NCBI RefSeq assembly: GCF_020144665.1
Contig: NZ_JAAHBQ010000063.1
Span: forward strand, 1-34,944
Origin: Oscillatoria salina IIICB1
GTDB taxonomy: Bacteria; Cyanobacteriota; Cyanobacteriia; Cyanobacteriales; SIO1D9
Reading direction: 5' to 3'
DNA length: 34,944 bases
Position numbers and translations under genes: made by a program. The notes beneath the pieces were generated by a model. It saw only the letters and a list, made by a program, of their open reading frames with translations, was not told the origin of the DNA and searched no databases. Shown piece after piece: positions 2,554-31,423 of the stretch. The number at the start of each line of letters is the position of its first letter. Within the stretch, counting starts at the first letter, position 1.

Positions 2554-3036
2554 TTAGAAAGAGTAAACTCTTCCCTTTTCATCTACATAAACAGCATTAT
2601 CGTACTCGGCACCGATATCAGTAGATGAACCTGGAGTTGCGCCATAAACTAAATCCGATCGCCGAATGCGTACTGCAACTACATTATTGCCGACATTACG
2701 GTAATCAAAAGCTAATAAAGCGCCTTGAGGATTATAAATATTTACATTAGCAATTTGATTCGCGCTGGTAATTGGCGGAACGCTAATCGTAACCAAGCCA
2801 CCTGTAGGGATGACTCCTCTAGCAGCGCTAACATTAGTTGAGTCATATGCTACTGCTACTCCCGAATCATTAATTAGTTGTAGCTGCATAAAACGGGTGT
2901 TATCCACCGTTGCTGTTGGTTGCCAGTAGCCCGGACGATAATTACCTGTAGGACTAGGCTGAGAATAAACTGTTAGTGGGGTTATTCCAGCGATCGCGGC
3001 GATCGCGGTAGCGAGAGTAAATGTTTTCAGTTTCAT
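2554..3036 (-). CDS. Secreted hypothetical protein
   Basis: A 160-residue protein with a clear Sec signal peptide: MKLKTFTLATAIAAIAG is a basic end followed by an Ala/Ile-rich core, with likely cleavage near VYS-QP at about residue 25. The mature part is beta-rich (MQLQLINDSGVAVAYD, GGLVTISVPP, NVVAVRIRRSDLVYG) with no cysteines, suggesting a small periplasmic or exported beta domain. I do not recognise a family. The neighbouring glnA is on the same strand, but 358 bp and a terminator separate them, so this gene is probably transcribed alone. Confidence 0.65.
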   Translation of the reverse strand: MKLKTFTLATAIAAIAGITPLTVYSQPSPTGNYRPGYWQPTATVDNTRFMQLQLINDSGVAVAYDSTNVSAARGVIPTGGLVTISVPPITSANQIANVNIYNPQGALLAFDYRNVGNNVVAVRIRRSDLVYGATPGSSTDIGAEYDNAVYVDEKGRVYSF

Positions 3037-3154
3037 GTTATTTCGAGTTAGACAAGTGAATCATCCCATCTGACCTTAATTTAACCCCGAACTGACTAAA
3101 AATCACTCTCAAGAAAAGATCCGTTAGTTAACAGCGATCGGGGATTTTGGTGAT

Positions 3155-3318
3155 TGGGGATTGGGGACCCTTGGATTGGGGATTGGGTTCAGTGAGCAGT
3201 GAACAGTTAACAGTGACCAGTTTATCCTCCTTGTCCCCCTTCCTTGTCTCCCCCCTCTCCCAAGTCTCCCCCCTCCTCCAAGTCTTCCCCCTCTTCCTTG
3301 TCTCCAATTCCCCTCTAG
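3155..3318. repeat. Low-complexity repeat tract (GGGATTGGG / CAGT / CTTGTCTCC units)
   Basis: The tract begins with GGGGATTGGG units and CAGTGAGCAGTGAACAGTTA-like heptamers related to the copies at 1561 and 15488. It continues as a pyrimidine-rich run of CTTGTCTCCCCC-type units. Open frames on both strands here are by-products of the repeat. It occupies the middle of the glnA to 2554-gene gap; 3037-3154 upstream of the secreted protein shows nothing definite. Confidence 0.75.
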
Positions 3319-3323
3319 AAGCT

Positions 3324-3347
3324 AAAAATGCCACCTTGATAGGTGGC
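3324..3347 (-). terminator. Intrinsic terminator of glnA
   Basis: Read on the minus strand, the perfect hairpin GCCACC-TATCAA-GGTGGC (3330-3347) is followed directly by ATTTTT (3324-3329). It lies about 48 bp beyond the glnA stop codon. Confidence 0.8.
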
Positions 3348-3394
3348 TTGTTTTATGGTATTGAAAGAGAAATTACTCTCAAATCTAAATCCGA

Positions 3395-4819
3395 TTAGAC
3401 ATCGTAGTAGAGAGAGAACTCGTAAGGATGAGGGCGCAAACGCAAAGGATTGACCTCATTATCCAGCTTGTACTCGATCCAGTTTTCGATGAAGTCTTCA
3501 GTGAAAACACCAGACTCAGTTAAGAACGCATTATCCTTCTCTAAATGTTCCAAAGCTGCTTCTAAGGAACCAGGAGTAGAAGGAATTTTACTGAGTTCTT
3601 CGGGGCTGAGATCGTAGATATCTACATCTAGAGGATCGCCAGGATCGATTTCGTTCTTAATTCCATCAATACCAGCACAAAGCATCGCAGCAAAGGCAAG
3701 ATAGGGGTTACAAGTAGCATCCGGACAACGAAACTCTAAACGCTTGGCTTTGGGGTTTGTACCAGAAAGAGGAATGCGAACCGATGCAGAACGATTACCT
3801 TGAGAGTAAGCTAAGTTTACGGGTGCTTCAAAGCCAGGAACCAACCGCTTGTAAGAGTTAGTAGTTGGGTTGGTTAAAGCTAAGAGTGCGGGAGCGTGTT
3901 TGAGAATACCGCCAATATAGTTTAACGCCATTTTACTCAGGTTGGCGTAGCCACTTTCACCCCAGAATAGAGGCTTTCCGTCTTTCCAGATCGATTGGTG
4001 GGTGTGCATCCCCGAACCATTGTCGTTAAACAATGGTTTCGGCATAAAGGTAACAGTTTTACCGTATTTTTTACCCACATTCTTGATGACGTATTTGTAA
4101 GTCATCAAATAGTCAGCCGCTTGAACTAAGGTAGCGAAGCGGAAACCGAGTTCGTTTTGTCCTCCGGTAGCAACTTCGTGGTGGTGTTTTTCGATGGGGA
4201 CACCGCACTCAGCCATTGTTAGTAGCATTTCCGTGCGAATATCTTGGAGAGTGTCGGTGGGAGCAACTGGGAAGTAACCTTCTTTATAACGGGGTTTGTA
4301 GCCCAAGTTACCACCGGGTTCCTCAGCACCGGAATTCCAACGTCCTTCGATGCTATCTACATAGTAGAAACCTTTGTTTTCGGTTTGGTCAAAGCGGACA
4401 TCTTCAAACACGAAGAATTCTGCTTCTGGACCAAAGTAAGCGGTATCACCCAGCCCAGTAGTAGCTAAATACTCGACTGCTTTTTTAGCAATTGTTCGAG
4501 GGTCGCGATCGTAATATTCTCCGGTACGCGGTTCTTTAATTGAGCAAATCATGCTCAGGGTTTTTTCTTTGTAGAAGGGATCGATCCAAGCAGTGGTAGG
4601 ATCGGGAACCATCGCCATGTCGGATTCATTGATCGCTTTCCAACCACGAATGCTGGAACCATCGAAAGGAACTCCCTCGTCAAAGGAAGCTTCTTCGATT
4701 TGATCGTAGTAGAACGAGCAATGTTGCCATATTCCTGGCATATCGATGAATTTCAGGTCAATAATCTTGATATCTTCGTCTCGAATCATTTTCAAGACTT
4801 CTTGGGGGGTTTCGGGCAT
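3395..4819 (-). CDS. glnA: Glutamine synthetase type I
   Basis: A 474-residue protein, full length for dodecameric GS-I, which makes glutamine from glutamate, ammonium and ATP as the entry point of nitrogen assimilation. Visible landmarks are the N-terminal beta-grasp domain ([18 protein letters not shown]), the catalytic blocks [44 protein letters not shown] and [17 protein letters not shown], and the R-SASVRIP segment. The adenylylation-region equivalent reads [11 protein letters not shown]; cyanobacterial GS is known to be controlled by inactivating factors instead of adenylylation. The start is supported by AGGAG five nt upstream. Regulation by NtcA is shown by the upstream promoter, and the gene has its own terminator, so it is monocistronic. 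Confidence 0.97.
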
Positions 4820-12058: not shown

Positions 12059-12109
12059 CAGCTAGCAGTGGAGTGAATAGACCTGAAATTTGCCTTCTAC
12101 TGCTAGCTG
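12059..12109 (-). ncRNA. Candidate right-end hairpin / omega-RNA region of tnpB
   Basis: CAGCTAGCAGT (12059-12069) and ACTGCTAGCTG (12099-12109) are perfect 11-bp arms around 29 nt, and the right arm spans the tnpB stop codon. A second small hairpin (arms CCTCG/CGAGG) lies inside the 3' coding end near 12121-12141. In characterised TnpB systems the guide RNA comes from the 3' end of tnpB plus the right end, so this is where it should be. That an RNA is actually made here is inference. Confidence 0.4.
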
Positions 12110-13338
12110 ATAGAGTAAACGACCTCGCCGATTAGGGTCGAGGCTTTCAGTAGCCCTGAAGTTATCGTACAAGACAACAACTGCGAACCTCCAGGCTGGT
12201 TGAAAGAGCAGCCCCAAAGCGCAATTACTAATGAAGCATTAACGTCCGCATCCCCTTGATCTTGACATCGAGGATTTGTACACCGGAAAGATTTCCCACC
12301 TCTAATACCTAAATGCTTGCATTTATGACAGGTCTGACTGGTATAAGCGGGAGGGATAGCAATTACCTCTACTCCTTCTTTGATTCCCTTGTACTCTAAA
12401 AAACTCTGCAATCGATCAAAAGCCCAGGAATTAGACCGTCTTCTTTTGGTCTTACTCCTGGGCTTTTCGTTTGTTCGTTCGCGAATTCCGGTTAAGTCTT
12501 CAATTGCCACCAACGCTTGTTGATGTTTAGCTTTATCGATAATCGCCTTGCTAATGTTATAGTTCAGCCACGATTGGAATCTTCGCTCTCGTCCCGATAG
12601 CCGTTTCAAAATCTGCCGACAGCGAGGGCGAGTTGACCTTGTGCCTTGGGACGCTTTCTTTTGCAGAGAAGCTCGAACGTGGCTGAAGCGATCTCGTTTG
12701 TTTTGAATCTTCTTTCCAGACCAGGATTGTCCGGTACTAGTTGCGGCAATATCCCTTCTTCCAAAGTCCACACCAATTACCTTATCGGTTTTGACAGGTT
12801 TGGGTGCGTCATCTTTAATCTGGATATGGGCGTACCAATTTCCGTCACGATGCTGACCGATTTGGGCGGAAGTCGGATTCTTATCTTTGAGCTTACCTCG
12901 ATGATAGGTACTAACTAGTAACGCCAGTTTCGTTCTTTTGCCAACAGTGCTAATGCTGATTAGCCAACCTTCTTCAATAAAGCGAAAGGTACGAGCGTCA
13001 CACTCAAAGCTAGTTGGCTTAAATCCTCTGACTTTTCTGCCTTTGTGTTTGGCGCTTAGGCGATTAGCTGCTACTCGAGCGCTAGCTCGAACGACATGAT
13101 TTGCTGATAAACCAAACTTAGCTTTAACTTCGTGGTAGCAAACAGCTTGGATAGAGTTGCGGTTGGTTAGTTTTGGATTGACTTCTGTATTAATCCAAGT
13201 GCAAGCGTCCGCAAAAGCGGTAGCTGTTTGAGATAACAACTGTTGTTGTTTCTCGTCTGCTTGTAGCTTGACAACTAAGGTTAATACTTGTTCCATGTCA
13301 TCTAAAACTTCACGATTATGATTATAGTGTGTTTTCAA
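12103..13338 (-). CDS. tnpB: TnpB RNA-guided endonuclease
   Basis: A 411-aa protein of the IS200/IS605 TnpB (OrfB) family, ancestral to Cas12. It uses a transposon-encoded RNA to cut DNA. All three RuvC carboxylates are present: Asp in VIGVDFGRRDIAA, Glu in LVAIEDLTGIRE, and Asp in DQGDADVNAS. The zinc finger is CHKCKHLG followed by CTNPRC. The N-terminal Lys/Arg-rich helical part is complete. The first possible Met is at 13338; a second, MEQVLTLVVKLQ (13296), fits the family start as well and cannot be excluded. The C-terminal tail after the zinc finger (QPGGSQLLSC...) runs into the element's right end. No tnpA accompanies it. Confidence 0.9.
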   Translation of the reverse strand: MKTHYNHNREVLDDMEQVLTLVVKLQADEKQQQLLSQTATAFADACTWINTEVNPKLTNRNSIQAVCYHEVKAKFGLSANHVVRASARVAANRLSAKHKGRKVRGFKPTSFECDARTFRFIEEGWLISISTVGKRTKLALLVSTYHRGKLKDKNPTSAQIGQHRDGNWYAHIQIKDDAPKPVKTDKVIGVDFGRRDIAATSTGQSWSGKKIQNKRDRFSHVRASLQKKASQGTRSTRPRCRQILKRLSGRERRFQSWLNYNISKAIIDKAKHQQALVAIEDLTGIRERTNEKPRSKTKRRRSNSWAFDRLQSFLEYKGIKEGVEVIAIPPAYTSQTCHKCKHLGIRGGKSFRCTNPRCQDQGDADVNASLVIALWGCSFNQPGGSQLLSCTITSGLLKASTLIGEVVYSIS

Positions 13339-17030: not shown

Positions 17031-18668
17031 ATGGTTTTGCCTCGACTTTTTTCCATTTTCCGTATCTTTTTGCTTGCTGGTTTTTTGGTCTTTCCTGCTT
17101 GTCAAAAAGAACCAGCTTCTCTGACTCGTCCTGAACCTTTACCACAAGATCCTTTGATCAAAGTTTATTTCAATAATAATCAAACTAGAGGCGCTGATTA
17201 CACTGAACCTTATCGAAAGATAACTCGACCGGGGGATGATTTGGAAACAATTATTATTGATGCTATTAATTCGGCAAACTCTACTATCGATCTTGCCGTT
17301 CAAGAGTTTCGTTTACCAAAAGTCGCCCAAGCTCTCGCTGAACGTCACCAAGCAGGAGTCCCAGTTAGAGTAATCTTAGAAAATACCTATAATCGTCCTT
17401 GGAGTAGCTTGACTGACACAGAAGTAAGCAAACTTAATCTAAGAGAAAAAAGACGCTATCTCGATGCAATTGCTCTCATCGATCTTAATAAAGATAATCA
17501 ACTTAGCACTGAAGAAATTAACGAACGAGATGCCTTGATTATCTTGAAAAATGCAGGTATTCCTATTCTTGACGATACCGCCGACGGTTCTAAAGGAACA
17601 GGTTTAATGCACCATAAATTTCTCGTCATCGATAACTATACCGTAATTTCTAGTTCGGCAAATTTAACTCTTAGTGGCGTACACGGTGATTTGTTAACAC
17701 CAGCAAGTCGCGGTAATGCTAACAATCTGCTCGTTATTAAAGACACTAAATTGGCTAGTTTGTTCGCGCAAGAATTTAACCTGATGTGGGGTGATGGAGT
17801 TGGCGGAAAATTAGATAGTAAATTTGGCTTAAAAAAACCACTCCGTCCTACAGAAAAATTAGTTATTGGTAATAATATTGTTTCCTTAAGATTTTCTCCT
17901 ACTTCTACTACCCTTCCTTGGAGTGATACTAGTAATGGTTTAATTGGCAATACGCTTAAAAATGCTACTCAAACAATCGAATTAGCCCTATATGTCTTTT
18001 CCGAACAAAACCTAGCCGATCTTCTCGAAACTCGTCACCAAAAAAATGTAGCAATTGAGGCTTTAATTGACTCTAGTTTCGCCTTCCGTAACTACAGTGA
18101 AGGACTAGATATGTTAGGAGTTGCCCTCAGTAATAAATGTCAGTATGAAGCAAATAATCGTCCTTGGCAAATACCTCTTGCTACTGTAGGCGTGCCTGAA
18201 TTACCAGAAGGTGACTTACTGCATCACAAATTTGCTGTTGTCGATGGTAAAACTGTAATTACAGGTTCTCAAAATTGGTCAGCCGCCGCAAATTATACCA
18301 ACGATGAGACTGTTTTAGTAATTGAAAATCCTACCGTTGCCGCTCATTTTCAACGTGAATTTGCCAGGTTGTATGCAAAATCTGTTTTAGGTGTACCAAT
18401 AGCCATTCAGGAGAAAATTACCGCAGAAGAGCAAGAATGTCCTGAAATTACCACAGCTTCTGAGAAAAATATACCACAAGGATTAATTAATATCAATACT
18501 GCCACAAAAAAAGAGTTAGAAACTTTACCTGGAATCGGACCAAAATTAGCACAAAAAGTCATTGAAACTCGTCAAGAACGACCTTTCACATCTTTAGAAG
18601 ATTTACAGCGAGTTTCGGGTATTGGTGCTAGTTTAGTAAATAAGTTAGAAGGGCGGGTTACTTGGTGA
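17031..18668 (+). CDS. Phospholipase D-like lipoprotein with EF-hand loop and HhH tail
   Basis: A 545-residue protein. Residues 1-24 are a lipoprotein signal (RIFLLAGFLVFPAC, lipidated C24). Two PLD-type active sites follow: H194-x-K196-x4-D201 in MHHKFLVIDNYT and H398-x-K400-x4-D405 in LHHKFAVVDGKT, each followed by an S/N motif (SSSANLTLSG, GSQNWSAAAN). Such a pair makes one phosphodiesterase site acting on phospholipid or nucleic acid. Residues 119-166 are an insertion containing a 12-residue EF-hand loop DLNKDNQLSTEE (151-162), which suggests calcium control. Residues 484-545 are a ComEA-like double helix-hairpin-helix (ININTATKKELETLPGIGPK), a DNA-binding module. A surface nuclease is the simplest reading, but unproven. 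Confidence 0.85.
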   Translation: MVLPRLFSIFRIFLLAGFLVFPACQKEPASLTRPEPLPQDPLIKVYFNNNQTRGADYTEPYRKITRPGDDLETIIIDAINSANSTIDLAVQEFRLPKVAQALAERHQAGVPVRVILENTYNRPWSSLTDTEVSKLNLREKRRYLDAIALIDLNKDNQLSTEEINERDALIILKNAGIPILDDTADGSKGTGLMHHKFLVIDNYTVISSSANLTLSGVHGDLLTPASRGNANNLLVIKDTKLASLFAQEFNLMWGDGVGGKLDSKFGLKKPLRPTEKLVIGNNIVSLRFSPTSTTLPWSDTSNGLIGNTLKNATQTIELALYVFSEQNLADLLETRHQKNVAIEALIDSSFAFRNYSEGLDMLGVALSNKCQYEANNRPWQIPLATVGVPELPEGDLLHHKFAVVDGKTVITGSQNWSAAANYTNDETVLVIENPTVAAHFQREFARLYAKSVLGVPIAIQEKITAEEQECPEITTASEKNIPQGLININTATKKELETLPGIGPKLAQKVIETRQERPFTSLEDLQRVSGIGASLVNKLEGRVTW

Positions 18669-19417: not shown

Positions 19418-19474
19418 AGGGTGCGCTCTTGACGCACCCAAAAAAAGTAAGCAAATTAACTTCTTAATGTCAAG
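19418..19474. repeat. Direct repeat, left copy (pheT 3' end plus hairpin)
   Basis: 57 bp matching 24737-24793 at 51 positions, in the same orientation. It contains the hairpin GGGTGCG-N7-CGCACCC, an A-run, and GTAAGCAAATTAACTTCTTA, which at the other copy is the end of pheT including its stop. Here it supplies the 3' region, and the TGA, of the 19470 gene. On the minus strand the hairpin is followed by TTTACTT and may terminate that gene. Confidence 0.85.
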
Positions 19475-19967
19475 CCCTTTGGTTCAAATCACTGATGACA
19501 ATATCCTCTCCCACCTCAACATCAGTTAGCATCTTTTGCCGAACAGAACTAGCTTTTTTCGCCTCTTGAGTCATCTTTTCGGCTTTTAAACGTCCTTTGG
19601 CTTTAATCCCACTTGCCATCACTTGCTCCACCTCTTGAGACAGTTGTGGTCGAATCTCTGCATCGATAACGTTCACAACTTCAGCAATTTCTGAATCTGT
19701 CTTCGCTGCTGCTTCGAGCTTTCGGGTTAGCACGTCTATACCGTACTCCTTTGGTTCTTGCTCTACAAGTTCTGGTTGATAAGTTACTCGCTCGATCGCA
19801 CTAGCTGTGTCTGGGACTTTACGCCACAATAATTGTTTAAGTTTGCCCATTTGCTCTAAGACTTTATCTCCCAATTCGGGTAATTTTTCGCCCAGGTTTT
19901 CCCCAACCTTTTCCACCATCTTGGTTAGAAAAAGGGTTACAAGTGCGGTGGTAGTTAGTGTTTCCAT
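19470..19967 (-). CDS. Helical hypothetical protein divergent from the giant membrane protein
   Basis: A 165-residue protein. Residues 1-17 are mildly hydrophobic (METLTTTALVTLFLTK), followed by an amphipathic stretch VEKVGENLGEKLPELGDKVLEQMGKLKQLLW. The rest is a charged helix-rich body with possible coiled coil (LTRKLEAAAKTDSEIAEVVNVI, KAEKMTQEAKKASSVRQKML). No enzyme motif is visible. From memory, short proteins starting with a similar hydrophobic / EKxGExxGE helix occur next to STAND- or NACHT-type genes in cyanobacteria. That fits its divergent pairing with the 20271 gene, but the functional link is inference. Its stop lies inside the direct repeat. Confidence 0.6.
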   Translation of the reverse strand: METLTTTALVTLFLTKMVEKVGENLGEKLPELGDKVLEQMGKLKQLLWRKVPDTASAIERVTYQPELVEQEPKEYGIDVLTRKLEAAAKTDSEIAEVVNVIDAEIRPQLSQEVEQVMASGIKAKGRLKAEKMTQEAKKASSVRQKMLTDVEVGEDIVISDLNQRA

Positions 19968-20270: not shown

Positions 20271-23200
20271 ATGTCTTCAAATTCTCCTGAAATTTCCCAA
20301 AAAGCTGCTAAAAATCTCCAAGCTGGTCGAGATATCAAGATTGGCGATATCATCCAAACCATCAATCAGTCTAAACCAGACTTTTTTGAACCTAATCCAA
20401 AGCTATTCGAGTCTAGCGACTTTCTCAGTCCCAAACCAGATTGGGAAAATGCTCTCATGAAGATTCTTCGGACAAACCGTCTTTTAGTAATGGGAGACAG
20501 CAACGAGATCGATAAAGCAACTTTAGCTCGTTATTTGGCATGGAAATTTCAAGCAATTCTAGATGGGGGAGCTTCTTCTCATCGGGGAAATACTCAAATC
20601 AAAGAATGGAATCGTAGCTCAGATATACAGAGTCTCGATGTCGCCTTTCAGAAAGAAGAGAAAACTACAATTTTCGTTTTGACTCAAATTGCGCCAAAAG
20701 ATATTGGCTATGACTTATCCCGCATTCAAAAGGCGATAACTTCTCACAATCATTATGTCGTAGTTAGCACAATTACACCTAAAGACAAATGGAAGTTACC
20801 CGAAAATGTTGAGAAATGCTGGCGAAACATAGAGGCTGAAGATATCTACGATCCAGAGGACTTAGCGAATCTTCTCAAGAGGAAATTGGAAAAGGTTAAA
20901 CAGTCTTTGGCTGACGAAACTCTTCAAATTTTTGAGAGATTGAGGCTCGGAGAAATAACAGAACAATTAAAGACTCCCGATCGCATCGATCGCTTTGTAG
21001 AATTGCTCGGCGCGGAAAAACAACCTCTCCAGGAAGCAAGAGTTCAGGAGCTGATTAAAATTACAACCGATCGAGACCAAAAAGACAATATTCAATTTTG
21101 GTATTACACCCTTCTCAAACCTCGCGAACAGCTATTAGCATTAGGACTGAGCTTGTTTAGCGGTTGTTTTGACGACCAATTTTTTGCGGCTCTAGAAGAA
21201 GTTACAACACACGTTTGGCAGCGAAGAGATGCTTCTTTGCGCGCTCCTGATTATTGCGACCTAGACAACTTACGCAACTTTTTCAACTTTGTTGAAACAG
21301 AGGAGTCTGGAACTAAAATAGAAAGCCGTATTTCTGACCAGCGTAGGCTGATCTTTGAAGTGGCGTGGAACAGCCACCGCAGACAAATTTTAGCTGCACT
21401 GCCACAGCTTGAAAAGCTGGTTAAGGAGTCGGCATCTAAAAGAACAATTAATCAAGAGTTATATGGCTCTTCAGAACGGCGCAAACAGCTTCGCGATTCG
21501 ATTGGCGATGCGATTAGTGATATCGGTTTGATTGACTTTAGCGCCGTAGAAGGTACGTTGTATCAGCTAGCAGCAGACCGAGAGATCGAAGTACAAGCGA
21601 TCGCAGCTTACACGATGGCACGCTGGCTTAGCGATCCGCAATATCAGCAGGAAAAACTTTTTCAAATCCTTCAAAGCTGGCAGTCGGATGCACGAATTAT
21701 TAGCGTTTTAAGGTCGATATTGCAAAAACTCGATGAGAGCAATACGGAGGAACCACAAGACTATGTGCGGGCGACAATTGCTCTGACAATTGGCTATGCA
21801 GCACAGTTCTACCCGCCGCAAGATCCCTCAGATAGTAATTCGGGTCTTCCCTCTCAACTGTGCGATCGCCTGAAAAATTTGGCTGACGACCCCAACAGTT
21901 TAGTTCGCGATCGCCTTGCTTCTGATACTTTGCCGAGAGTCGTTCCTTTGCATTTAATACAACTTCGACCCTTGCTGTGCTATATGATGCGATATCCAGA
22001 TTTAATCCCATCTATTAGCGCGAGTCTGGCAGTCGCCTATTCTATCAAGCCTGAAGCTGTTGAAGAAATGCTTAAAACTTGGAGCAATAATCAGCCTGAT
22101 CGATTTTTAGATGGCGAACCCCCATCTCGCGAACATCCATCTCGCGAAAATCTGTTGGCAACCGTAGCCTTAACCTATGGTGCAATTGAAGGAGAACCCC
22201 TTAAAGCCTTTGAACGCCTGCAAACTCTTCTTGAACAAAACAATCATCCTTTCATCCGCCAAGCAGTTATTGAAGCGATGGGAGTTCAACTGTCTCAAAA
22301 TTTTAATGACTTAGAAAATAATGACGATCGCGATGCTCTGTTCGAGGTAACTACTCAACTCACCCGTGACGAACGAAAGCAAGTTGTGGCAATCCTGACC
22401 GAGATTTATCTAGCTCAGCGCGAACGGTTAGAGGGAGGCGATCGCGTTATTAAAATCAACGATCGCTTCTATCGTATCTGGCTCGACTCCCACCAACGCC
22501 CTCGGACTGCGGTGGAACAAACAATGAATCGCTGGATCAAAAAAGAGCCTAACGATACCAATGCTTTAGCCCAAGAAATTGCCACAGAAGCTTTATTTAA
22601 ATTTGCTTCTGTGTTTGAACTCGAAGAAGAGCGCATTAAATCTTTGCAGGAAGATACAGACAAACAAAGCTTTGTTACTAAGCCAACTGTGGGAGAAATC
22701 ATCAGTACAAGACCCGAATACGGATTATATCTCGACAAATTAGTTCCGTGGATTGCAACTCGACAAAATGAAGGCTATCGACCTTATGTCCGCAACTTGT
22801 TACCTGAAGCCTTGAAACTTCATAAAATCCGCAACCAAGCAATGGATTTTGTCTTGGAGAAGTGGAAAAAGGCTGAAGATGAAGAGCGAAGAAATGACGA
22901 GCAAATCAAAAAAATCTCCGATTTTCTAGAAGAGGGATTCTTCTGGGCAAAGTATCTGAATTGGTTAATCGCTAGCAGTGGTGTTTTGCTGATTGCGCTG
23001 GGTATTGTCGCGATCGATCTCGTCAGGAATCGCCCCATACTCGATCCTGTACCCCCCCTTGGTCAGGGGACAGGAGAAGAACCGCCAATCTCCGATTCAA
23101 TAATTCCGATCGCTCCTTTTGGTGTTGTTGAAGACGAACAATCTCCTAACTTCGATCGAGGGTCGTTAACCGTAAAATTTAGCGCCAACGGTACACCTAG

Positions 23201-24719
23201 CGATCGCCTGGGCATTGTTGAGTCTGGTGAAATTGGAATTGAGGGAACTGACGTAACCTACGAAGGAGTCCCTATCGGTCGTTTCAGTGGGGGTGAAGGA
23301 GTAGAACCTCTCGTAGTCAACTTTAACGATGGTGCTACGCGAGAAGCTGTTGAAGCTCTGATACGCCAGATTACCTACGATAATGTTTCTGATAACCCGA
23401 CTCCTGGGGAGCGGAAAGTAGAATTCCAGCTTACTGATGGAGACGGTGGTACCAGTAATACCCTCTCGACAATTATTCACGTCTTTGCTAGTGAGACTGC
23501 TCTCGATCTGAAGGTTCCTGGCGAGCAAACTGTCAAAGAAAATACTAATCTACCCATCAGTGGTATCAGTATTGATGCTCCCGACAATCAAAAAGCAACC
23601 GCGATCCTGGAAGTAAATAATGGTACGCTGACGCTGAAGAGTGACGTAGCTAATGGCTTGAGTGCCGATAATATTCGCAATAACGAAACTCAACAAGTTA
23701 CCTTGACAGGAACTGTTGCTCAAATTAACGCTACCCTAGCCGATACTGCGGCGATCGCTTACAAAGGCAATCCCGAATTTAGCGGTTCTGACTCCCTAAC
23801 TGTCACAGTCACTGAAGAAGGCAAAAATGTCGAAAATGGGTTGGTCTGGCCACCTAACGCTCAAATTCCCAAGACTCTTAGCCAGAACATTAGCGTCACT
23901 GTGGAAACGGCAAATCCTCCCCCAATAATTACGCTTCCCCCCGCAAAATTAACCAATGAAGACACGGACTTAACCCTTGATGGTATTCAAATTAGCGACC
24001 CGAACAGCAAAGACTTGACACTCATCCTAGCAGTTAATAACGGCACCCTGACGATTAAAACCGACGTAGCAGAAGGCTTAACGGCTGAGAATATTCAAGG
24101 CAATCAAACCCAGAGAGTCAGGCTTCAAGGCAGTATCGAGCAAATCAACAAAACTTTGGTAAGTTCTAATGGTGTTATTTATCGAGGAAATCCCAATTTT
24201 AGTGGGAATGATTTGTTAGAGATTAGTGCGAGTGACACTCAGAAATTGACCCGGAATACGCTCAGCATAACTGTTAACGACCGTCCTACCCTCAGTATTC
24301 CAGAATCTATTACTACTGAAAGCGGGATAAGGATCGAAAAAGTCGAAGCTTTAGCTATAATTAACCAATATTTACAGGCAAAAGAAAGAATATTTGCTTT
24401 TCCCTACGATCGCGAACTTGCTGCTCGGATTCTTACTGGAAAAGCCTTTGCCGAGAAAGTATCTCAACCGGGCGGAGGTTCGCTGGAATGGTTGCGGGAA
24501 AATCGAGCATACTGGATTTACGGAGAACAAAACGTAGAACCGATTGGTTCGCTCTCTGTTACAGGCGATGAAGTGAATCTTGATGTCCGGATAAGGGAGG
24601 AACTTGCCTACTATGAAAACGGAATACGGGAATATTCGGGAACTAACGTAGGTAACTACAAATTCACGCTACAAATGGATGATAATGTTTGGAAAATCTC
24701 GAATATTCAATCAAAATAG
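20271..24719 (+). CDS. Giant transmembrane protein: STAND-like/solenoid - TM - cadherin-like repeats - IMS domain
   Basis: A 1482-aa protein. Residues 10-30 carry the tag KNLQAGRDIKIGDIIQTINQ seen in cyanobacterial conflict proteins. About 40-260 resembles a STAND-type NTPase whose P-loop is degenerate (VMGDSNEIDKATLARYLAW, no GxxGxGKS/T) with a hydrophobic strand TTIFVLTQI at the Walker B position. About 260-890 is a helical, HEAT-like solenoid. The membrane span is about 895-917 (YLNWLIASSGVLLIALGIVA), preceded by Lys/Arg-rich sequence, so the N-terminus is inside. About 943-1340 holds three cadherin-like units, two being near-duplicates (LEVNNGTLTLKSDVANGLSA / LAVNNGTLTIKTDVAEGLTA). About 1357-1482 resembles the ARC6/Ftn2 IMS (DUF4101) domain (ALAIINQYLQAKERIF, NRAYWIYG, VWKISNIQ). 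ATG 20271 is preferred to GTG 20262. Confidence 0.85.
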   Translation: MSSNSPEISQKAAKNLQAGRDIKIGDIIQTINQSKPDFFEPNPKLFESSDFLSPKPDWENALMKILRTNRLLVMGDSNEIDKATLARYLAWKFQAILDGGASSHRGNTQIKEWNRSSDIQSLDVAFQKEEKTTIFVLTQIAPKDIGYDLSRIQKAITSHNHYVVVSTITPKDKWKLPENVEKCWRNIEAEDIYDPEDLANLLKRKLEKVKQSLADETLQIFERLRLGEITEQLKTPDRIDRFVELLGAEKQPLQEARVQELIKITTDRDQKDNIQFWYYTLLKPREQLLALGLSLFSGCFDDQFFAALEEVTTHVWQRRDASLRAPDYCDLDNLRNFFNFVETEESGTKIESRISDQRRLIFEVAWNSHRRQILAALPQLEKLVKESASKRTINQELYGSSERRKQLRDSIGDAISDIGLIDFSAVEGTLYQLAADREIEVQAIAAYTMARWLSDPQYQQEKLFQILQSWQSDARIISVLRSILQKLDESNTEEPQDYVRATIALTIGYAAQFYPPQDPSDSNSGLPSQLCDRLKNLADDPNSLVRDRLASDTLPRVVPLHLIQLRPLLCYMMRYPDLIPSISASLAVAYSIKPEAVEEMLKTWSNNQPDRFLDGEPPSREHPSRENLLATVALTYGAIEGEPLKAFERLQTLLEQNNHPFIRQAVIEAMGVQLSQNFNDLENNDDRDALFEVTTQLTRDERKQVVAILTEIYLAQRERLEGGDRVIKINDRFYRIWLDSHQRPRTAVEQTMNRWIKKEPNDTNALAQEIATEALFKFASVFELEEERIKSLQEDTDKQSFVTKPTVGEIISTRPEYGLYLDKLVPWIATRQNEGYRPYVRNLLPEALKLHKIRNQAMDFVLEKWKKAEDEERRNDEQIKKISDFLEEGFFWAKYLNWLIASSGVLLIALGIVAIDLVRNRPILDPVPPLGQGTGEEPPISDSIIPIAPFGVVEDEQSPNFDRGSLTVKFSANGTPSDRLGIVESGEIGIEGTDVTYEGVPIGRFSGGEGVEPLVVNFNDGATREAVEALIRQITYDNVSDNPTPGERKVEFQLTDGDGGTSNTLSTIIHVFASETALDLKVPGEQTVKENTNLPISGISIDAPDNQKATAILEVNNGTLTLKSDVANGLSADNIRNNETQQVTLTGTVAQINATLADTAAIAYKGNPEFSGSDSLTVTVTEEGKNVENGLVWPPNAQIPKTLSQNISVTVETANPPPIITLPPAKLTNEDTDLTLDGIQISDPNSKDLTLILAVNNGTLTIKTDVAEGLTAENIQGNQTQRVRLQGSIEQINKTLVSSNGVIYRGNPNFSGNDLLEISASDTQKLTRNTLSITVNDRPTLSIPESITTESGIRIEKVEALAIINQYLQAKERIFAFPYDRELAARILTGKAFAEKVSQPGGGSLEWLRENRAYWIYGEQNVEPIGSLSVTGDEVNLDVRIREELAYYENGIREYSGTNVGNYKFTLQMDDNVWKISNIQSK

Positions 24720-27731: not shown

Positions 27732-29363
27732 ATGAGCTACTGCCTAAATCCCGACTGTCCTAAGCCTAAAAACCCAGAGAGCGCCCAGGAATGTCTTGCC
27801 TGCGGCTCAAAGTTGTCATTGTTATTGAGCGGTCGCTACCGAGTAATCAGAATTTTGGGTCAAGGTGGGTTTGGAAAAACCTTTTTAGCGCGCGATCTCT
27901 CTCTTCCGGGTAATCCTAGTTGCGTAATCAAACAACTGCGTCCGAATACCACTGCACCACATATGTTACAGATGGCGCGGGAGCTATTTAATCGCGAAGC
28001 AGAAACCCTAGGAAGGATCGGCAATCATCCCCAAGTGCCTAGATTACTAGACTATTTTGAAGATAACCAACAGTTTTATTTGGTTCAAGAGTATGTTAAA
28101 GGTTATAACTTCCAACAAGAAATCAAGAAAAACGGACCAATGAGTGAAGCAGGAGTAAGGCAATTTCTCAGTGAAATTTTGCCCTTACTGCAATACATTC
28201 ACTCCCAGCAAGTAATTCATCGGGATATCAAACCAGCCAACTTGATTCGTCGCGAAGAAGACCGGAAATTGGTTTTAATTGACTTCGGAGCAGTAAAAAA
28301 TCAAGTTGACCCAGTTGCAGCAGCGAATACCTCCGATCAAACAGCATTGACAGGATTTGCGGTGGGAACCCCAGGCTTTGCACCGCCAGAGCAAATGATG
28401 ATGCGACCAGTATATGCGAGTGATGTTTACGCGGTGGGAGTCACTTGTGTTTATTTGTTAACTGGGAAATCGCCCAAAGACTTAAATTATAATCCCTCAA
28501 CTGGAGAAATGGTCTGGCAGCAATACGTTCACGTCAGCGATCATTTCGCCAACGTTTTGAGAAAAATGCTCGAAGTTTCCGTACGCGATCGCTATCAAAG
28601 TGCTGATGAGGTTCTCCGGGCGCTCGATCTCGAACCTTATCTGGATAGTTTAGCTCAGGGGATGATTACTTCGGCAAATAATCCTGGTAAATCTAAGGGC
28701 GGTGTCTTTGATAGCGGTGATTTTGATGCACCGAGTTCGCCGTCTTCTCCGACTTCTGCGACTGCGAAGTTAGCAATGGCAATTAAAAAGCGGAAATCTC
28801 GCCAAAATAATACTGGTGTTGGTAATAATTTATATACTTCAGGAGCAAGTTTCGGTCGCTTAACTCCTCCAAGCAATATGGGGGGAAATCAATCACCAAG
28901 AAGCAGTTCTGGAAGTAAAAAAAGAATAAGCAACCGGATGGATGCGCAAACAGTCTTGACGAGCTATCAAAAAGGAAGACGCGATTTTACTGACCAAAAT
29001 TTAAGTTTGCTCAATCTTCAAGAAGCTAATTTGTCCAAGGGAATTTTTCATCAATCTAAGTTAACTAAAGTTAACCTGGCAGGAGCAAATCTGACTAATG
29101 CTGATTTTGGGAAAGCGAATTTGACTAATGCAAATTTGCGGGATGCGAATTTAGGTCGGGCTTACTTAAGCTACACGAACTTAGAAGGAGCGGATTTGCG
29201 GGGTGCTGACCTGAGTTTTGCTTATCTCAATTATGCAAATTTGAAAAATACTAATTTATGTGGTGCTAATCTGACTAATGCCAAGGTGACAGAAGAACAA
29301 CTCGCCCAAGCAAAGACTAATTGGACAACAATTATGCCCAATGGAAAGCGAGGTTTTTGGTAA
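27732..29363 (+). CDS. spkB: Ser/Thr protein kinase with zinc-ribbon-like start and pentapeptide-repeat tail
   Basis: A 543-aa protein. An N-terminal four-Cys motif (C4, C9, C21, C24 in SYCLNPDCP...CLACG) precedes a complete Hanks-type kinase domain (about 35-310): Gly loop LGQGGFGKTF, VIK Lys67, HRDIKPAN (163-170), DFG (184-186) and GTPGFAPPEQ. Residues 310-410 are a Ser/Gly/Lys-rich linker. From about 420 to the end run pentapeptide repeats (ANLTNADFGKANLTNANLRD). This architecture matches Synechocystis SpkB, tied to oxidative-stress signalling, where the cysteines matter. There is no membrane span. All catalytic residues are intact, unlike the convergent kinase next door. Confidence 0.88.
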   Translation: MSYCLNPDCPKPKNPESAQECLACGSKLSLLLSGRYRVIRILGQGGFGKTFLARDLSLPGNPSCVIKQLRPNTTAPHMLQMARELFNREAETLGRIGNHPQVPRLLDYFEDNQQFYLVQEYVKGYNFQQEIKKNGPMSEAGVRQFLSEILPLLQYIHSQQVIHRDIKPANLIRREEDRKLVLIDFGAVKNQVDPVAAANTSDQTALTGFAVGTPGFAPPEQMMMRPVYASDVYAVGVTCVYLLTGKSPKDLNYNPSTGEMVWQQYVHVSDHFANVLRKMLEVSVRDRYQSADEVLRALDLEPYLDSLAQGMITSANNPGKSKGGVFDSGDFDAPSSPSSPTSATAKLAMAIKKRKSRQNNTGVGNNLYTSGASFGRLTPPSNMGGNQSPRSSSGSKKRISNRMDAQTVLTSYQKGRRDFTDQNLSLLNLQEANLSKGIFHQSKLTKVNLAGANLTNADFGKANLTNANLRDANLGRAYLSYTNLEGADLRGADLSFAYLNYANLKNTNLCGANLTNAKVTEEQLAQAKTNWTTIMPNGKRGFW

Positions 29364-29449: not shown

Positions 29450-31423
29450 TCACTCAGTATTAGTTGCTAATTCGGAAACGGAAATCTCCAGCTTGAAGTC
29501 GAGAGGTTTATTAGCTCTAGAAACGATGACAAATTCATAATAACCCGTTTCTGGGAGCGTTCCTGACCAAGTATTTTCGGTAGAATCTTCCACTAAAGTG
29601 ACATTACCTGTAGGACTGTAGAGAGAAAGCAAAGCGCGATCGCTACTTTCCAGACTAATTTCTAAGAACCGATCGGCTTCTAGTTGAGCGATGTAAACTT
29701 TGCCTCCTCCAGGTTCGAGAGTACCGCGAGCAATATTTTCCTCAGTTTTACCATCGAAAAAAAGTTCGCCGAGAAGTTCGGTTGTTTGTAACGCTTTCAG
29801 TTGGTCAAAGACGATCGCACTCCAAACTTGACCGATAGGTTCATCAAAAAACTGCTTGTCTTCCTGTTCGGGAAAATGCTCAAAAAAATCTGCATCTGCA
29901 AGATCGTAAAGAGTCCGACTGCTCACGCGCTCCTGGTTAGCCTGTTGTATCCAACGCTGGCGATCGGCTAAAGTGTAACTACCTAAACCTCGACGCGCTT
30001 CATCAGAAAGATCGGCTAACATATTTAACAATTCTTGTGCTTGATAGTCCCAACGATGTCGCCATTGAGAATCTTCTGGGTTATTTGTCGGAATGCGTCC
30101 TTCTTGTTCGGGGTATTTTTCCCAATACACTTCGTTGACTAAACCGATAAAAAAATCGTATTCAATCGCGAGATTAATGCGGCGAGAACGCAAAATTTCT
30201 TTGCGAGAGCGTTCCGTCACCGACAAATCCGTTGCTGGCTTTGGTTCGGGGTCATCTCGGAGAGGAAAACTCACCTTTTCTGGCAGATTTTCCAGAGTCT
30301 CGCGATCTGACTTATCGAGTTGTTGCGATCGCACGTTTGATTCTAACCAAGCATTACCCGCAAACCAACCTAGACTTGCTGCACCGAAAACCACTGTTAA
30401 ACCCAGAGTGATTTTACCCACTAAACTGAAAGCAAGCTTAAATTTTGAATTTGGCATCCAATTCTCTTCGGTTATTGGTTTAGCTGCTTTACTCTGAGGA
30501 TGTTGTCGAACCACATGAACACAGCCCGGTAGAGGTTCCCAAAAAACTGATAATACATCTGTCGCGGTTTGGGGGCGATCGCTCCGTTCCTCACCAAGCA
30601 TTTGCTCTAAAATTTGTCTCAACTTCGGACTTAGATTGGTTTGCTGTTTCCAGTTCCATTCTAAAGTTCGTAAATCAATCAAATGTTGGGGTTTTTTCCC
30701 ACTCAACAGCACTAAAGCTGTGACTGCTAAAGCATACAGATCGCTATTCGGTGCAACTTTTCCTGCTTGGAGTTGCTCTTGGGGAGCATATCCATTGCGA
30801 CCAAAAACGGTTGTCCTTTTCTTGCGAGTGTCAGTAAACTCAGATACTAATTCCTCGGTTACTTGAGAAATCAGACCAAAATTAATTAATGCTGGCATTC
30901 CATCGGTTTGACGCAAGAGCAAATTATCCGGACAAATATCTTGGTGAACTACCCCCATTGCGTGAATGTACTGTAAAACAGGTAAAAGCTGTCGGAAAAG
31001 TTCAGTAATTTCTGCTTCACTAAATTGTAGTCCTTGTTTTTTACGAGCATTGAGGAAAAAGTGATAAGTTTGCCCTTCAAAGTATTCCTCTACCAAAAAC
31101 AAACTTAGTTTACCCTCTGTCTCACAACGCAAAAATTCCCGCAACTTAGGAATTTGCGGATGTTGTAGCTGAAAGAGAAGATCTGCCTCAACCCGTAATC
31201 TTTCTTGAGCTTGAGCCAGAATAGAAGCATCTTGAATTTGAGGAAGTAACTCCTTTAAAACACATAGTTGATTGCACGTATGTAAATCCTCTACTAGATA
31301 AGTAGAGCCTATCCCCCTACTCAAGCGTCGGGAACCGTTAGACGAGCCTATAGATTTTAGTTGACGCAGCAACCGATAGCGATCGCACAAGATTGTCTCA
31401 GACCGATCGAGAGAATTTTCCAT
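29450..31423 (-). CDS. Membrane Ser/Thr kinase-like protein, probable pseudokinase
   Basis: A 657-aa protein. Residues 15-300 follow the Hanks kinase fold, with eroded active site. The Gly loop is irregular (LSRGIGSTYLVED) after an insertion at 24-33. The ATP Lys57 (VLKELL) remains. The catalytic loop is HQDICPDN (160-167), so HRD Arg is Gln161 and the catalytic-loop Lys is Cys164, though Asp162 and Asn167 are kept. DFG reads NFG (181-183), losing the metal-binding Asp. One membrane span lies at about 331-355. The outer part, 356-657, has an unrecognised helical region and a final beta domain (GTLEPGGGKVYIAQLEADRFLEISL to end) like pre-peptidase C-terminal (PPC) domains. Weak activity cannot be excluded. 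Confidence 0.85.
   Translation of the reverse strand: MENSLDRSETILCDRYRLLRQLKSIGSSNGSRRLSRGIGSTYLVEDLHTCNQLCVLKELLPQIQDASILAQAQERLRVEADLLFQLQHPQIPKLREFLRCETEGKLSLFLVEEYFEGQTYHFFLNARKKQGLQFSEAEITELFRQLLPVLQYIHAMGVVHQDICPDNLLLRQTDGMPALINFGLISQVTEELVSEFTDTRKKRTTVFGRNGYAPQEQLQAGKVAPNSDLYALAVTALVLLSGKKPQHLIDLRTLEWNWKQQTNLSPKLRQILEQMLGEERSDRPQTATDVLSVFWEPLPGCVHVVRQHPQSKAAKPITEENWMPNSKFKLAFSLVGKITLGLTVVFGAASLGWFAGNAWLESNVRSQQLDKSDRETLENLPEKVSFPLRDDPEPKPATDLSVTERSRKEILRSRRINLAIEYDFFIGLVNEVYWEKYPEQEGRIPTNNPEDSQWRHRWDYQAQELLNMLADLSDEARRGLGSYTLADRQRWIQQANQERVSSRTLYDLADADFFEHFPEQEDKQFFDEPIGQVWSAIVFDQLKALQTTELLGELFFDGKTEENIARGTLEPGGGKVYIAQLEADRFLEISLESSDRALLSLYSPTGNVTLVEDSTENTWSGTLPETGYYEFVIVSRANKPLDFKLEISVSELATNTE

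What the first reader, a model, noticed from the sequence alone, without database searches (positions are those of the whole stretch)
20271..24719. Giant protein joining a STAND-like/solenoid cytoplasmic half to cadherin-like repeats and an ARC6-type IMS domain
Seen: a conflict-protein-like N-terminal tag (LQAGRDIKIGDI), a P-loop-like segment without the glycine/GK signature, a long helical region, one membrane span with positive-inside flank, near-duplicate extracellular repeats, and a C-terminus that reads like the IMS/DUF4101 domain of ARC6/Ftn2. Known: ARC6/Ftn2 is a division protein with a single span and its IMS domain on the outer side, the same topology. Inactive STAND modules have been described in bacterial conflict systems. 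Inference: this may be a membrane-spanning sensor or defence protein that links envelope or division state to a cytoplasmic platform. I do not know of this combination having been described.
Basis: partly seen in the sequence, partly recalled or inferred. Interest (0 to 1): 0.78.

Follow-up and report, generated by a model that had tools for sequence, protein, structure and literature searches.

The report
Membrane-spanning STAND receptor with matching effector tag
A cyanobacterial gene joins a NOD-like signalling platform inside the cell to a sensor-like region outside the membrane, and it carries a short tag that resembles one on the gene next door, so it looks like an alarm that reads the cell envelope and calls a neighbouring effector protein.

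Summary
The ORF is real: a STAND fold with a degenerate P-loop, a HEAT-like solenoid, one membrane span, cadherin-like repeats and an ARC6-like IMS domain. The division (ARC6/Ftn2) reading fails: this IMS lies outside the Ftn2 clade, and some relatives carry SH3 there instead.

I collected 18 loci with the STAND/HEAT part (A). In 6, A and the span-plus-ectodomain part (B) are separate neighbouring genes; the window fuses them. A's N-terminal 'conflict tag' resembles a tag on the neighbouring gene's product (0 of 200,000 re-pairings as good). That neighbour varies: small helical protein (window), TIR, PNP nucleosidase, Ser/Thr kinase. This is the layout published for NLR/BELL amyloid-signalling (BASS) pairs. 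In 6 of 8 loci with a cadherin plus IMS/SH3 ectodomain, a VanY-type carboxypeptidase gene follows directly.

Best reading: a membrane-anchored, wall-facing version of amyloid-motif STAND signalling. Fold, architecture and tag pairing rest on calls; ligand, amyloid formation and cell death are inferred. The window's own tag match is weaker than in the best loci, 4 of 18 loci show no tagged partner, and VanY is not adjacent in the window.

The parts
19470..19967 (-). Small helical protein (165 aa), BELL-like candidate effector, divergent from the giant gene; N-terminal helical part aa 3-109
   Evidence: ORF; model of low confidence, pLDDT 64.5; no Pfam family over its cut-off, no PDB match with E <= 0.001; distant relatives at the same place in G001, G140, L053, L054
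19566..19604 (-). First tag copy of the small protein (aa 122-134, KAKGRLKAEKMTQ)
   Evidence: leave-one-locus-out profile, 5.3 bits, 29 of 43,326 background windows as high
19479..19517 (-). Second tag copy of the small protein (aa 151-163, EVGEDIVISDLNQ)
   Evidence: leave-one-locus-out profile, 18.4 bits, 8 of 43,326 background windows as high, the background holding motif copies
20271..24719 (+). Giant protein: fusion of A (tag, STAND, HEAT-like) and B (span, cadherin-like repeats, IMS)
   Evidence: A and B are separate genes in 6 of 18 loci
20319..20357 (+). N-terminal tag of the receptor (aa 17-29, QAGRDIKIGDIIQ), in a part modelled as disordered (aa 1-36)
   Evidence: 15.2 bits in leave-one-locus-out profile, best hit of the whole protein; model
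20382..21707 (+). STAND module (aa 38-479)
   Evidence: model and VIA matches to MalT, Apaf-1, NRC1, 6mfv
20493..20516 (+). Degenerate Walker A (aa 75-82, GDSNEIDK)
   Evidence: GK[ST] absent in 18 of 18 readable rows of alignment A3
21339..22670 (+). HEAT-like superhelix (aa 357-800)
   Evidence: model; weak HEAT_2
22770..22883 (+). Juxtamembrane helical segment (aa 834-871) that begins the B gene in relatives
   Evidence: alignment A2
22968..23024 (+). Membrane span (aa 900-918)
   Evidence: hydropathy
23538..23843 (+). Cadherin-like repeat 1 (aa 1090-1191)
23958..24263 (+). Cadherin-like repeat 2 (aa 1230-1331)
24348..24701 (+). ARC6-like IMS domain, non-Ftn2 type (aa 1360-1477)

Best explanation
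It is a membrane-anchored, wall-facing receptor of an amyloid-motif (BASS-like) STAND signalling pair. The part outside the membrane (cadherin-like stalk plus IMS domain; SH3 in sister systems) reads the envelope. A signal passes through one span and a conserved juxtamembrane helical segment to a cytoplasmic STAND-HEAT platform whose P-loop is degenerate, so that clustering by the ectodomain, not an ATP cycle, probably switches it. Clustered N-terminal tags then form a beta (amyloid-like) seed that templates the two tag copies of the neighbouring small helical protein, whose helical part acts on the membrane. In other loci the same kind of platform carries another tag and calls a TIR, PNP-nucleosidase or kinase effector. 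Shown by calls: the domain order, the STAND fold, the degenerate P-loop, the statistical pairing of tags, the effector swaps, the recurrent VanY neighbour. Inferred: the ligand, amyloid formation, cell death, and the role of VanY.
For: STAND fold (model). GK[ST] absent in 18 of 18 readable rows. Tag pairing over 18 loci, partner taken as the nearest upstream gene: summed score 1056, best of 200,000 re-pairings 861, none as high; own partner ranks first in 8 of 18 and second in 4, the window among these; an earlier run over 17 loci, with the tagged downstream gene for L055: 0 of 100,000. For the window a profile from three other loci finds the tag at the right place in both proteins (18.4 and 15.2 bits). 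Two tag copies at the C-terminus of the small protein in 4 loci, modelled as two three-strand sets 29 residues apart, at low confidence; repeats on the BELL side are reported for BASS (PMC8086366, PMC9815663, passages). Effectors: TIR, PNP, kinase, some matching defence effector models. A span in A or in an adjacent B at the set threshold in 14 of 18 loci. Ectodomain: IMS in 5, SH3 in 3. VanY directly downstream (gap -38 to +69 nt) in 6 of 8 such loci (PF02557 at each), with only 2-3 VanY matches per genome.
Against: Nothing was tested at the bench. The window's pair is not among the strongest: rank 2 of 18, and 6 of 500 shuffles of its N-terminus score as high. L053 fails that test (405 of 500), and L054 is weak in both tests (18 of 500; 43-73 of 43,326). 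No tagged partner was seen in 4 of 18 loci (L051, L052, L057, L088). The small protein matches no family, its model finds no PDB relative, and its N-terminal hydrophobic stretch is weak (mean hydropathy 1.01 in the window), so 'BELL' is by place and shape. VanY is not adjacent in the window or in Okeania. L055 has no span. The tags could pair by beta-strand or other contacts that are not amyloid.
Confidence: 0.55

Rival explanations
1. Same parts, but the tags pair through ordinary homotypic beta or coiled contacts, as the effector-associated (EAD) and Death-like domains are thought to do; no templated amyloid. The receptor is a wall-sensing conflict protein of the kind described by Kaur et al. 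2020.
For: Two tagged partners also hold EAD10 or EAD11. PMC7159879 (section 20 read, passages of section 29) describes iSTAND and GAP1-N2 systems with spans and PEGA, SH3, NTF2 or cadherin domains outside.
Against: The tags are short, differ widely between loci and are doubled on the effector side, as reported for BASS and HET-s (PMC8086366, PMC9815663, passages). No MoxR or vWA match among the 12 window ORFs scanned around the gene.
Confidence: 0.25
2. An envelope-homeostasis receptor, not a death system: IMS/SH3 receptors and VanY form a wall-maintenance module whose output is either a kinase or a STAND scaffold.
For: The VanY subfamily beside B also lies directly beside IMS proteins outside this system in 3 of 34 ORFs examined (two kinases, one other), and 616 nt after two kinase-IMS genes in Okeania (found from the VanY side). 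Unlinked VanY form their own clade, 100/99.
Against: The partners of A include TIR and PNP enzymes that match defence effector models. VanY is lacking beside the window gene.
Confidence: 0.14
3. A division protein related to ARC6/Ftn2.
For: IMS at the C-terminus after one span.
Against: The IMS lies outside the Ftn2 clade, is replaced by SH3 in three sister receptors, and the genome has a separate Ftn2-type gene.
Confidence: 0.03
4. A decaying or chance fusion without function.
For: The family is rare: 11 of 388 genomes of the order sample. The G001 copy has a frameshift at the P-loop, the G140 partner lacks its N-terminus, and the G457 A region lies in two frames.
Against: A 1482-codon open frame with all parts kept, and a second independent fusion with SH3 and VanY in G426.
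Confidence: 0.03

Closest known systems
Bacterial amyloid signalling pairs (BASS motifs, NLR plus BELL; Dyrka et al. 2020, not held, known here from PMC7889193, PMC8086366 and PMC9815663, passages)
   Same: Neighbouring genes; motif at the N-terminus of a STAND-fold receptor and at the C-terminus of a small helical protein; TIR also used as effector
   Different: Here the receptor has a degenerate P-loop, no NACHT/NB-ARC Pfam match, a membrane span and an outer sensor region; several partners carry the tag at their N-terminus; whether the motif is one of BASS1-10 was not tested
iSTAND ternary and GAP1-N2 conflict systems (Kaur et al. 2020, PMC7159879)
   Same: Inactive STAND core; spans followed by wall-related or cadherin domains
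   Different: Those have MoxR plus vWA or GTPase partners; here a tag-matched effector and VanY
ARC6/Ftn2
   Same: One span, IMS at the outer C-terminus
   Different: Other IMS clade; no J-like domain found by Pfam in the window protein; different cytoplasmic part
Kinase-IMS receptors of cyanobacteria (own genome C88)
   Same: Related IMS type; the same VanY subfamily can follow
   Different: Output is a Ser/Thr kinase, not a STAND platform

Membership tests
BASS-type amyloid signalling pair | Motif shared by receptor N-terminus and neighbouring effector C-terminus | tested here: met
   in the window met at moderate strength (rank 2 of 18; 18.4 and 15.2 bits)
BASS-type amyloid signalling pair | Motif matches one of the BASS1-10 profiles | not tested
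   profiles not at hand; the defining paper is not held
BASS-type amyloid signalling pair | Effector is a BELL domain (helical bundle with hydrophobic helix) | tested here: inconclusive
   helical model of low confidence, no family or fold match, weak hydrophobic stretch in the window, stronger in L053 and G001
BASS-type amyloid signalling pair | Tags form fibres that seed each other | not testable with these tools
   needs the bench
NLR in the strict sense (NACHT or NB-ARC NTPase) | Profile match to NACHT/NB-ARC with an intact Walker A | tested here: not met
   no such Pfam match in the window or in the relatives scanned; GK[ST] absent in 18 of 18 rows
STAND fold (superfamily) | P-loop, helical and winged-helix arrangement as in MalT/Apaf-1 | tested here: met
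ARC6/Ftn2 division proteins | IMS of the Ftn2 clade | tested here: not met
ARC6/Ftn2 division proteins | IMS domain after one span | tested here: met
iSTAND ternary system | MoxR and vWA genes in the neighbourhood | tested here: not met
   none among the 12 window ORFs scanned; other loci were only read by eye

The most novel reading that the evidence does not exclude
A transmembrane amyloid-templating immune receptor in bacteria (and one archaeon): the sensor stands in the periplasm on the cell wall, the signal crosses the membrane to an ATP-independent STAND scaffold, and a short self-propagating tag selects one of several effectors (membrane-acting, TIR, PNP, kinase), with a carboxypeptidase that edits the wall as part of the system.
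Probability: 0.4. Interest if true: 0.88.

Novelty: new variant of a known kind. Interest (0 to 1): 0.75.

Why it matters
NLR-type amyloid signalling in fungi and bacteria has been described as cytoplasmic, and what it senses is an open question (PMC7889193, passages, calls the biological role a blind spot). A version whose sensor lies outside the membrane, with SH3 or IMS domains and a wall enzyme encoded beside it, would point to the cell wall as the thing watched and make that question testable. It would also show a STAND scaffold that works without a canonical P-loop, and tags as interchangeable plugs between one receptor type and unlike effectors.

Tried and rejected
ARC6/Ftn2 division protein: rejected by the tree and by the SH3 swaps.

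G001 'nonsense' TAA: first taken for a broken gene; rejected, because G281 and G140 have the A/B gene border at the same place and an AGGAG precedes the next ATG. The frameshift at the G001 P-loop stands.

G399 hit (L049, E 9.7e-4): dropped as a chance match to a helical-repeat protein.

SPOR-like look of the outer part of G561 and G457: by eye only; Pfam shows none, so not claimed.

First scan of genome contigs with the single protein found nothing; the plasmid search gave mainly cadherin-like or IMS pieces, none covering 80% of the query. PADLOC and NCBIfam name neither A nor B. A profile of A finds no solved structure at E below 1. The small protein's model matches nothing. No sigma-70-like promoter found between the two window genes. 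In the VIA list a family that is not shown is not excluded.

Paper searches: in the listings (titles and starts of abstracts) nothing described this combination; the listings are capped, and subscription papers and preprints are not held.

Notebook slips, mended here: entry 4 says rank 1 in 9 of 18 (8 is right); entry 5 says 33 other IMS ORFs (34); entry 6 says 17 readable P-loop rows with K in 15 (18 and 16), and entry 5 gives VanY gaps for the IMS type only.
Full report
What is there. The ORF 20271-24719 (+) is open for 1482 codons. The window lies on contig C63 of a 5.96 Mb genome of 163 contigs. Pfam gives a full-length ARC6-like IMS domain at aa 1360-1477 (52.2 bits, cut-off 22.8), with weak HEAT_2 and Big_9. 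Hydropathy gives one span, aa 900-918. Two cadherin-like repeats share 49 of 102 residues.

The cytoplasmic part. A model of aa 1-891 from 19 sequences has pLDDT 77.6 and pTM 0.73; aa 1-36, which hold the tag, are modelled with pLDDT under 50. Among the chains that Foldseek ranked highest, VIA puts MalT (Z 16.7, 347 residues, 4.5 A), Apaf-1, NRC1 NB-ARC and a STAND protein first, over model residues of about 33-561; the first other rows have 11.9. Foldseek's own best rows are human SAMD9 (E 6e-7). The Walker A motif GK[ST] is missing in 18 of 18 readable rows; a lysine follows D, N or R in 16 of 18, and L050 has DKS. So: STAND fold, degenerate P-loop.

Relatives. Only one of 60 related genomes gave a near-full-length match (G001). 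A phylum sample of 386 genomes added G281 and G140; an alignment search of the genome collection gave 11 loci, and an order sample 11 of 388 genomes. After joining doubles there are 18 loci, plus a second copy in G555. A later phylum run with the 19-row profile again gave 4 of 386; these scans score at most two candidates per genome. Named sources include Microcystis aeruginosa LEGE 91341, Okeania sp. SIO2B3, Pelatocladus, Calothrix and Iningainema, and, outside cyanobacteria, a Methanotrichaceae archaeon and a Saprospiraceae bacterium, both metagenome bins.

One protein or two. In 6 of 18 loci (G001, G281, G140, SBLK, Okeania, G602) the STAND/HEAT part (A) and the span-plus-ectodomain part (B) are separate neighbouring genes on one strand. 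They are fused, with cadherin-like repeats, in the window and in G426. Three more (L053, G561 and, over two frames, G457) continue past a span into other outer sequence; five (L050, L051, L052, L054, L057) end with a span and little or no outer part; L055 shows none and G568 is cut by its contig. At the threshold used, A or an adjacent B has a span in 14 of 18 loci; the B of G140 falls short of it. B ends in IMS in 5 loci (window, G001, SBLK, Okeania, G602) and in SH3 in 3 (G140, G426, and G281 just under the cut-off: 24.8 against 27).

The tag. In the window it is the divergent gene 19470-19967 (-). I compared the first 75 residues of A with the nearest upstream gene product in 18 loci; this rule was set after I had seen the loci and was applied by hand. 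The summed score is 1056; the best of 200,000 re-pairings reached 861. The own partner ranks first in 8 of 18 and second in 4 (window, L054, G426, G568). Against 500 shuffles of its own N-terminus the match is unreached in 10 of 18; for the window 6 of 500, for L054 18 of 500; L053, L055, L088, L051, L052 and L057 are not supported by it. With the tagged downstream gene for L055 and 17 loci: 0 of 100,000. In the window, G140, L053 and L054 the tag is doubled at the end of the small protein. A profile trained on the other three loci finds the window copies as best hits: 18.4 bits in the small protein and 15.2 in A (8 and 9 of 43,326 background windows as high, the background including motif copies). 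The first window copy is weaker (5.3 bits), and L054 and the A side of L053 are poorly separated. The model of the small protein, at low confidence, draws each copy as three strands, 29 residues apart.

The partners. By type: small helical, BELL-like proteins in window, G001, G140, L053, L054; small proteins with the tag at the N-terminus in G281, G568, G426 and L050; TIR with EAD10 in G602; PNP_UDP in Okeania, G561 and (downstream, with EAD11) L055; a Ser/Thr kinase in SBLK; no tagged partner seen in L051, L052, L057, L088. The PNP and TIR partners match effector models of PADLOC; the A, B and BELL-like proteins given to it do not. [quoted passage not shown] The paper that defines BASS is not held.

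IMS and VanY. In a tree of 55 IMS domains (16 of the 30 Ftn2-type loci used) the Ftn2 rows plus one kinase stand apart from the other 38 at 100/100; the window pairs with SBLK (100/93), and the five B rows need two changes of label. VanY follows B directly, gaps -38 to +69 nt, in G001, SBLK, G602, G281, G140 and G426, but not in the window or Okeania: 6 of 8. PF02557 confirms all six, and these genomes hold only 2-3 VanY matches each. Elsewhere it follows 3 of 34 other IMS ORFs that I fetched, a part of the list, and 0 of 30 Ftn2-type loci, where mostly about 1.5 kb could be seen. In Okeania another VanY lies 616 nt after two kinase-IMS genes. Four unlinked VanY form their own clade (100/99); the linked ones group outside it, except that the place of the long-branched G140 copy is unsure.

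How it most likely works. Shown: parts, fold, pairing of tags, swapping of effectors and of outer domains. Inferred: the outer domain reads the wall or an envelope protein; clustering of the scaffold brings the tags together; the tags seed the effector; the effector harms or stops the cell. The degenerate P-loop suggests that the push comes from outside rather than from an ATP cycle. VanY may make, trim or reset the wall signal.

Known and new. The working principle resembles BASS signalling; I do not file it as an NLR in the strict sense, since no NACHT/NB-ARC profile matches and Walker A is lost. Wall-facing conflict systems with STAND-like cores are known (PMC7159879, section 20 read, section 29 in passages). 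The combination of tag-paired effector, degenerate STAND, span, IMS/SH3 ectodomain and VanY was not seen in the listings of my paper searches. I call it a new variant of a known kind.

Noticed in passing
G000:C88 (L037:3730-5190 - and 3002-3721 -); L146, L139; L163: Ser/Thr kinase (or other protein) with an outer IMS domain, followed by the same VanY subfamily: a receptor plus wall enzyme module with other outputs.
   Followed up: partly
window 12103-13338 (-): TnpB-like protein (Cas12f1-like TNB domain, OrfB_IS605).
   Followed up: no
window 17031-18668 (+): Phospholipase D-like protein with a helix-hairpin-helix end, two genes upstream of the receptor.
   Followed up: no
window 27732-29363 (+) and 29450-31423 (-): Two Ser/Thr kinase genes face each other, one ending in pentapeptide repeats, the other with a hydrophobic stretch and an outer-looking part.
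   Followed up: no
L047:1413-3737 (+) and 3747-4148 (+): In G281, close to the receptor locus, proteins with pentapeptide repeats and GGGNYNE/GDNNQ-like tags, as if several tagged proteins shared one neighbourhood.
   Followed up: no
L050:9455-12760 (+): A Methanotrichaceae archaeon bin holds a tag-paired copy with a near-identical tag in both genes; gene transfer or binning error was not tested.
   Followed up: partly
L036:26-997 (-): An NB-ARC STAND protein beside the G001 system.
   Followed up: no
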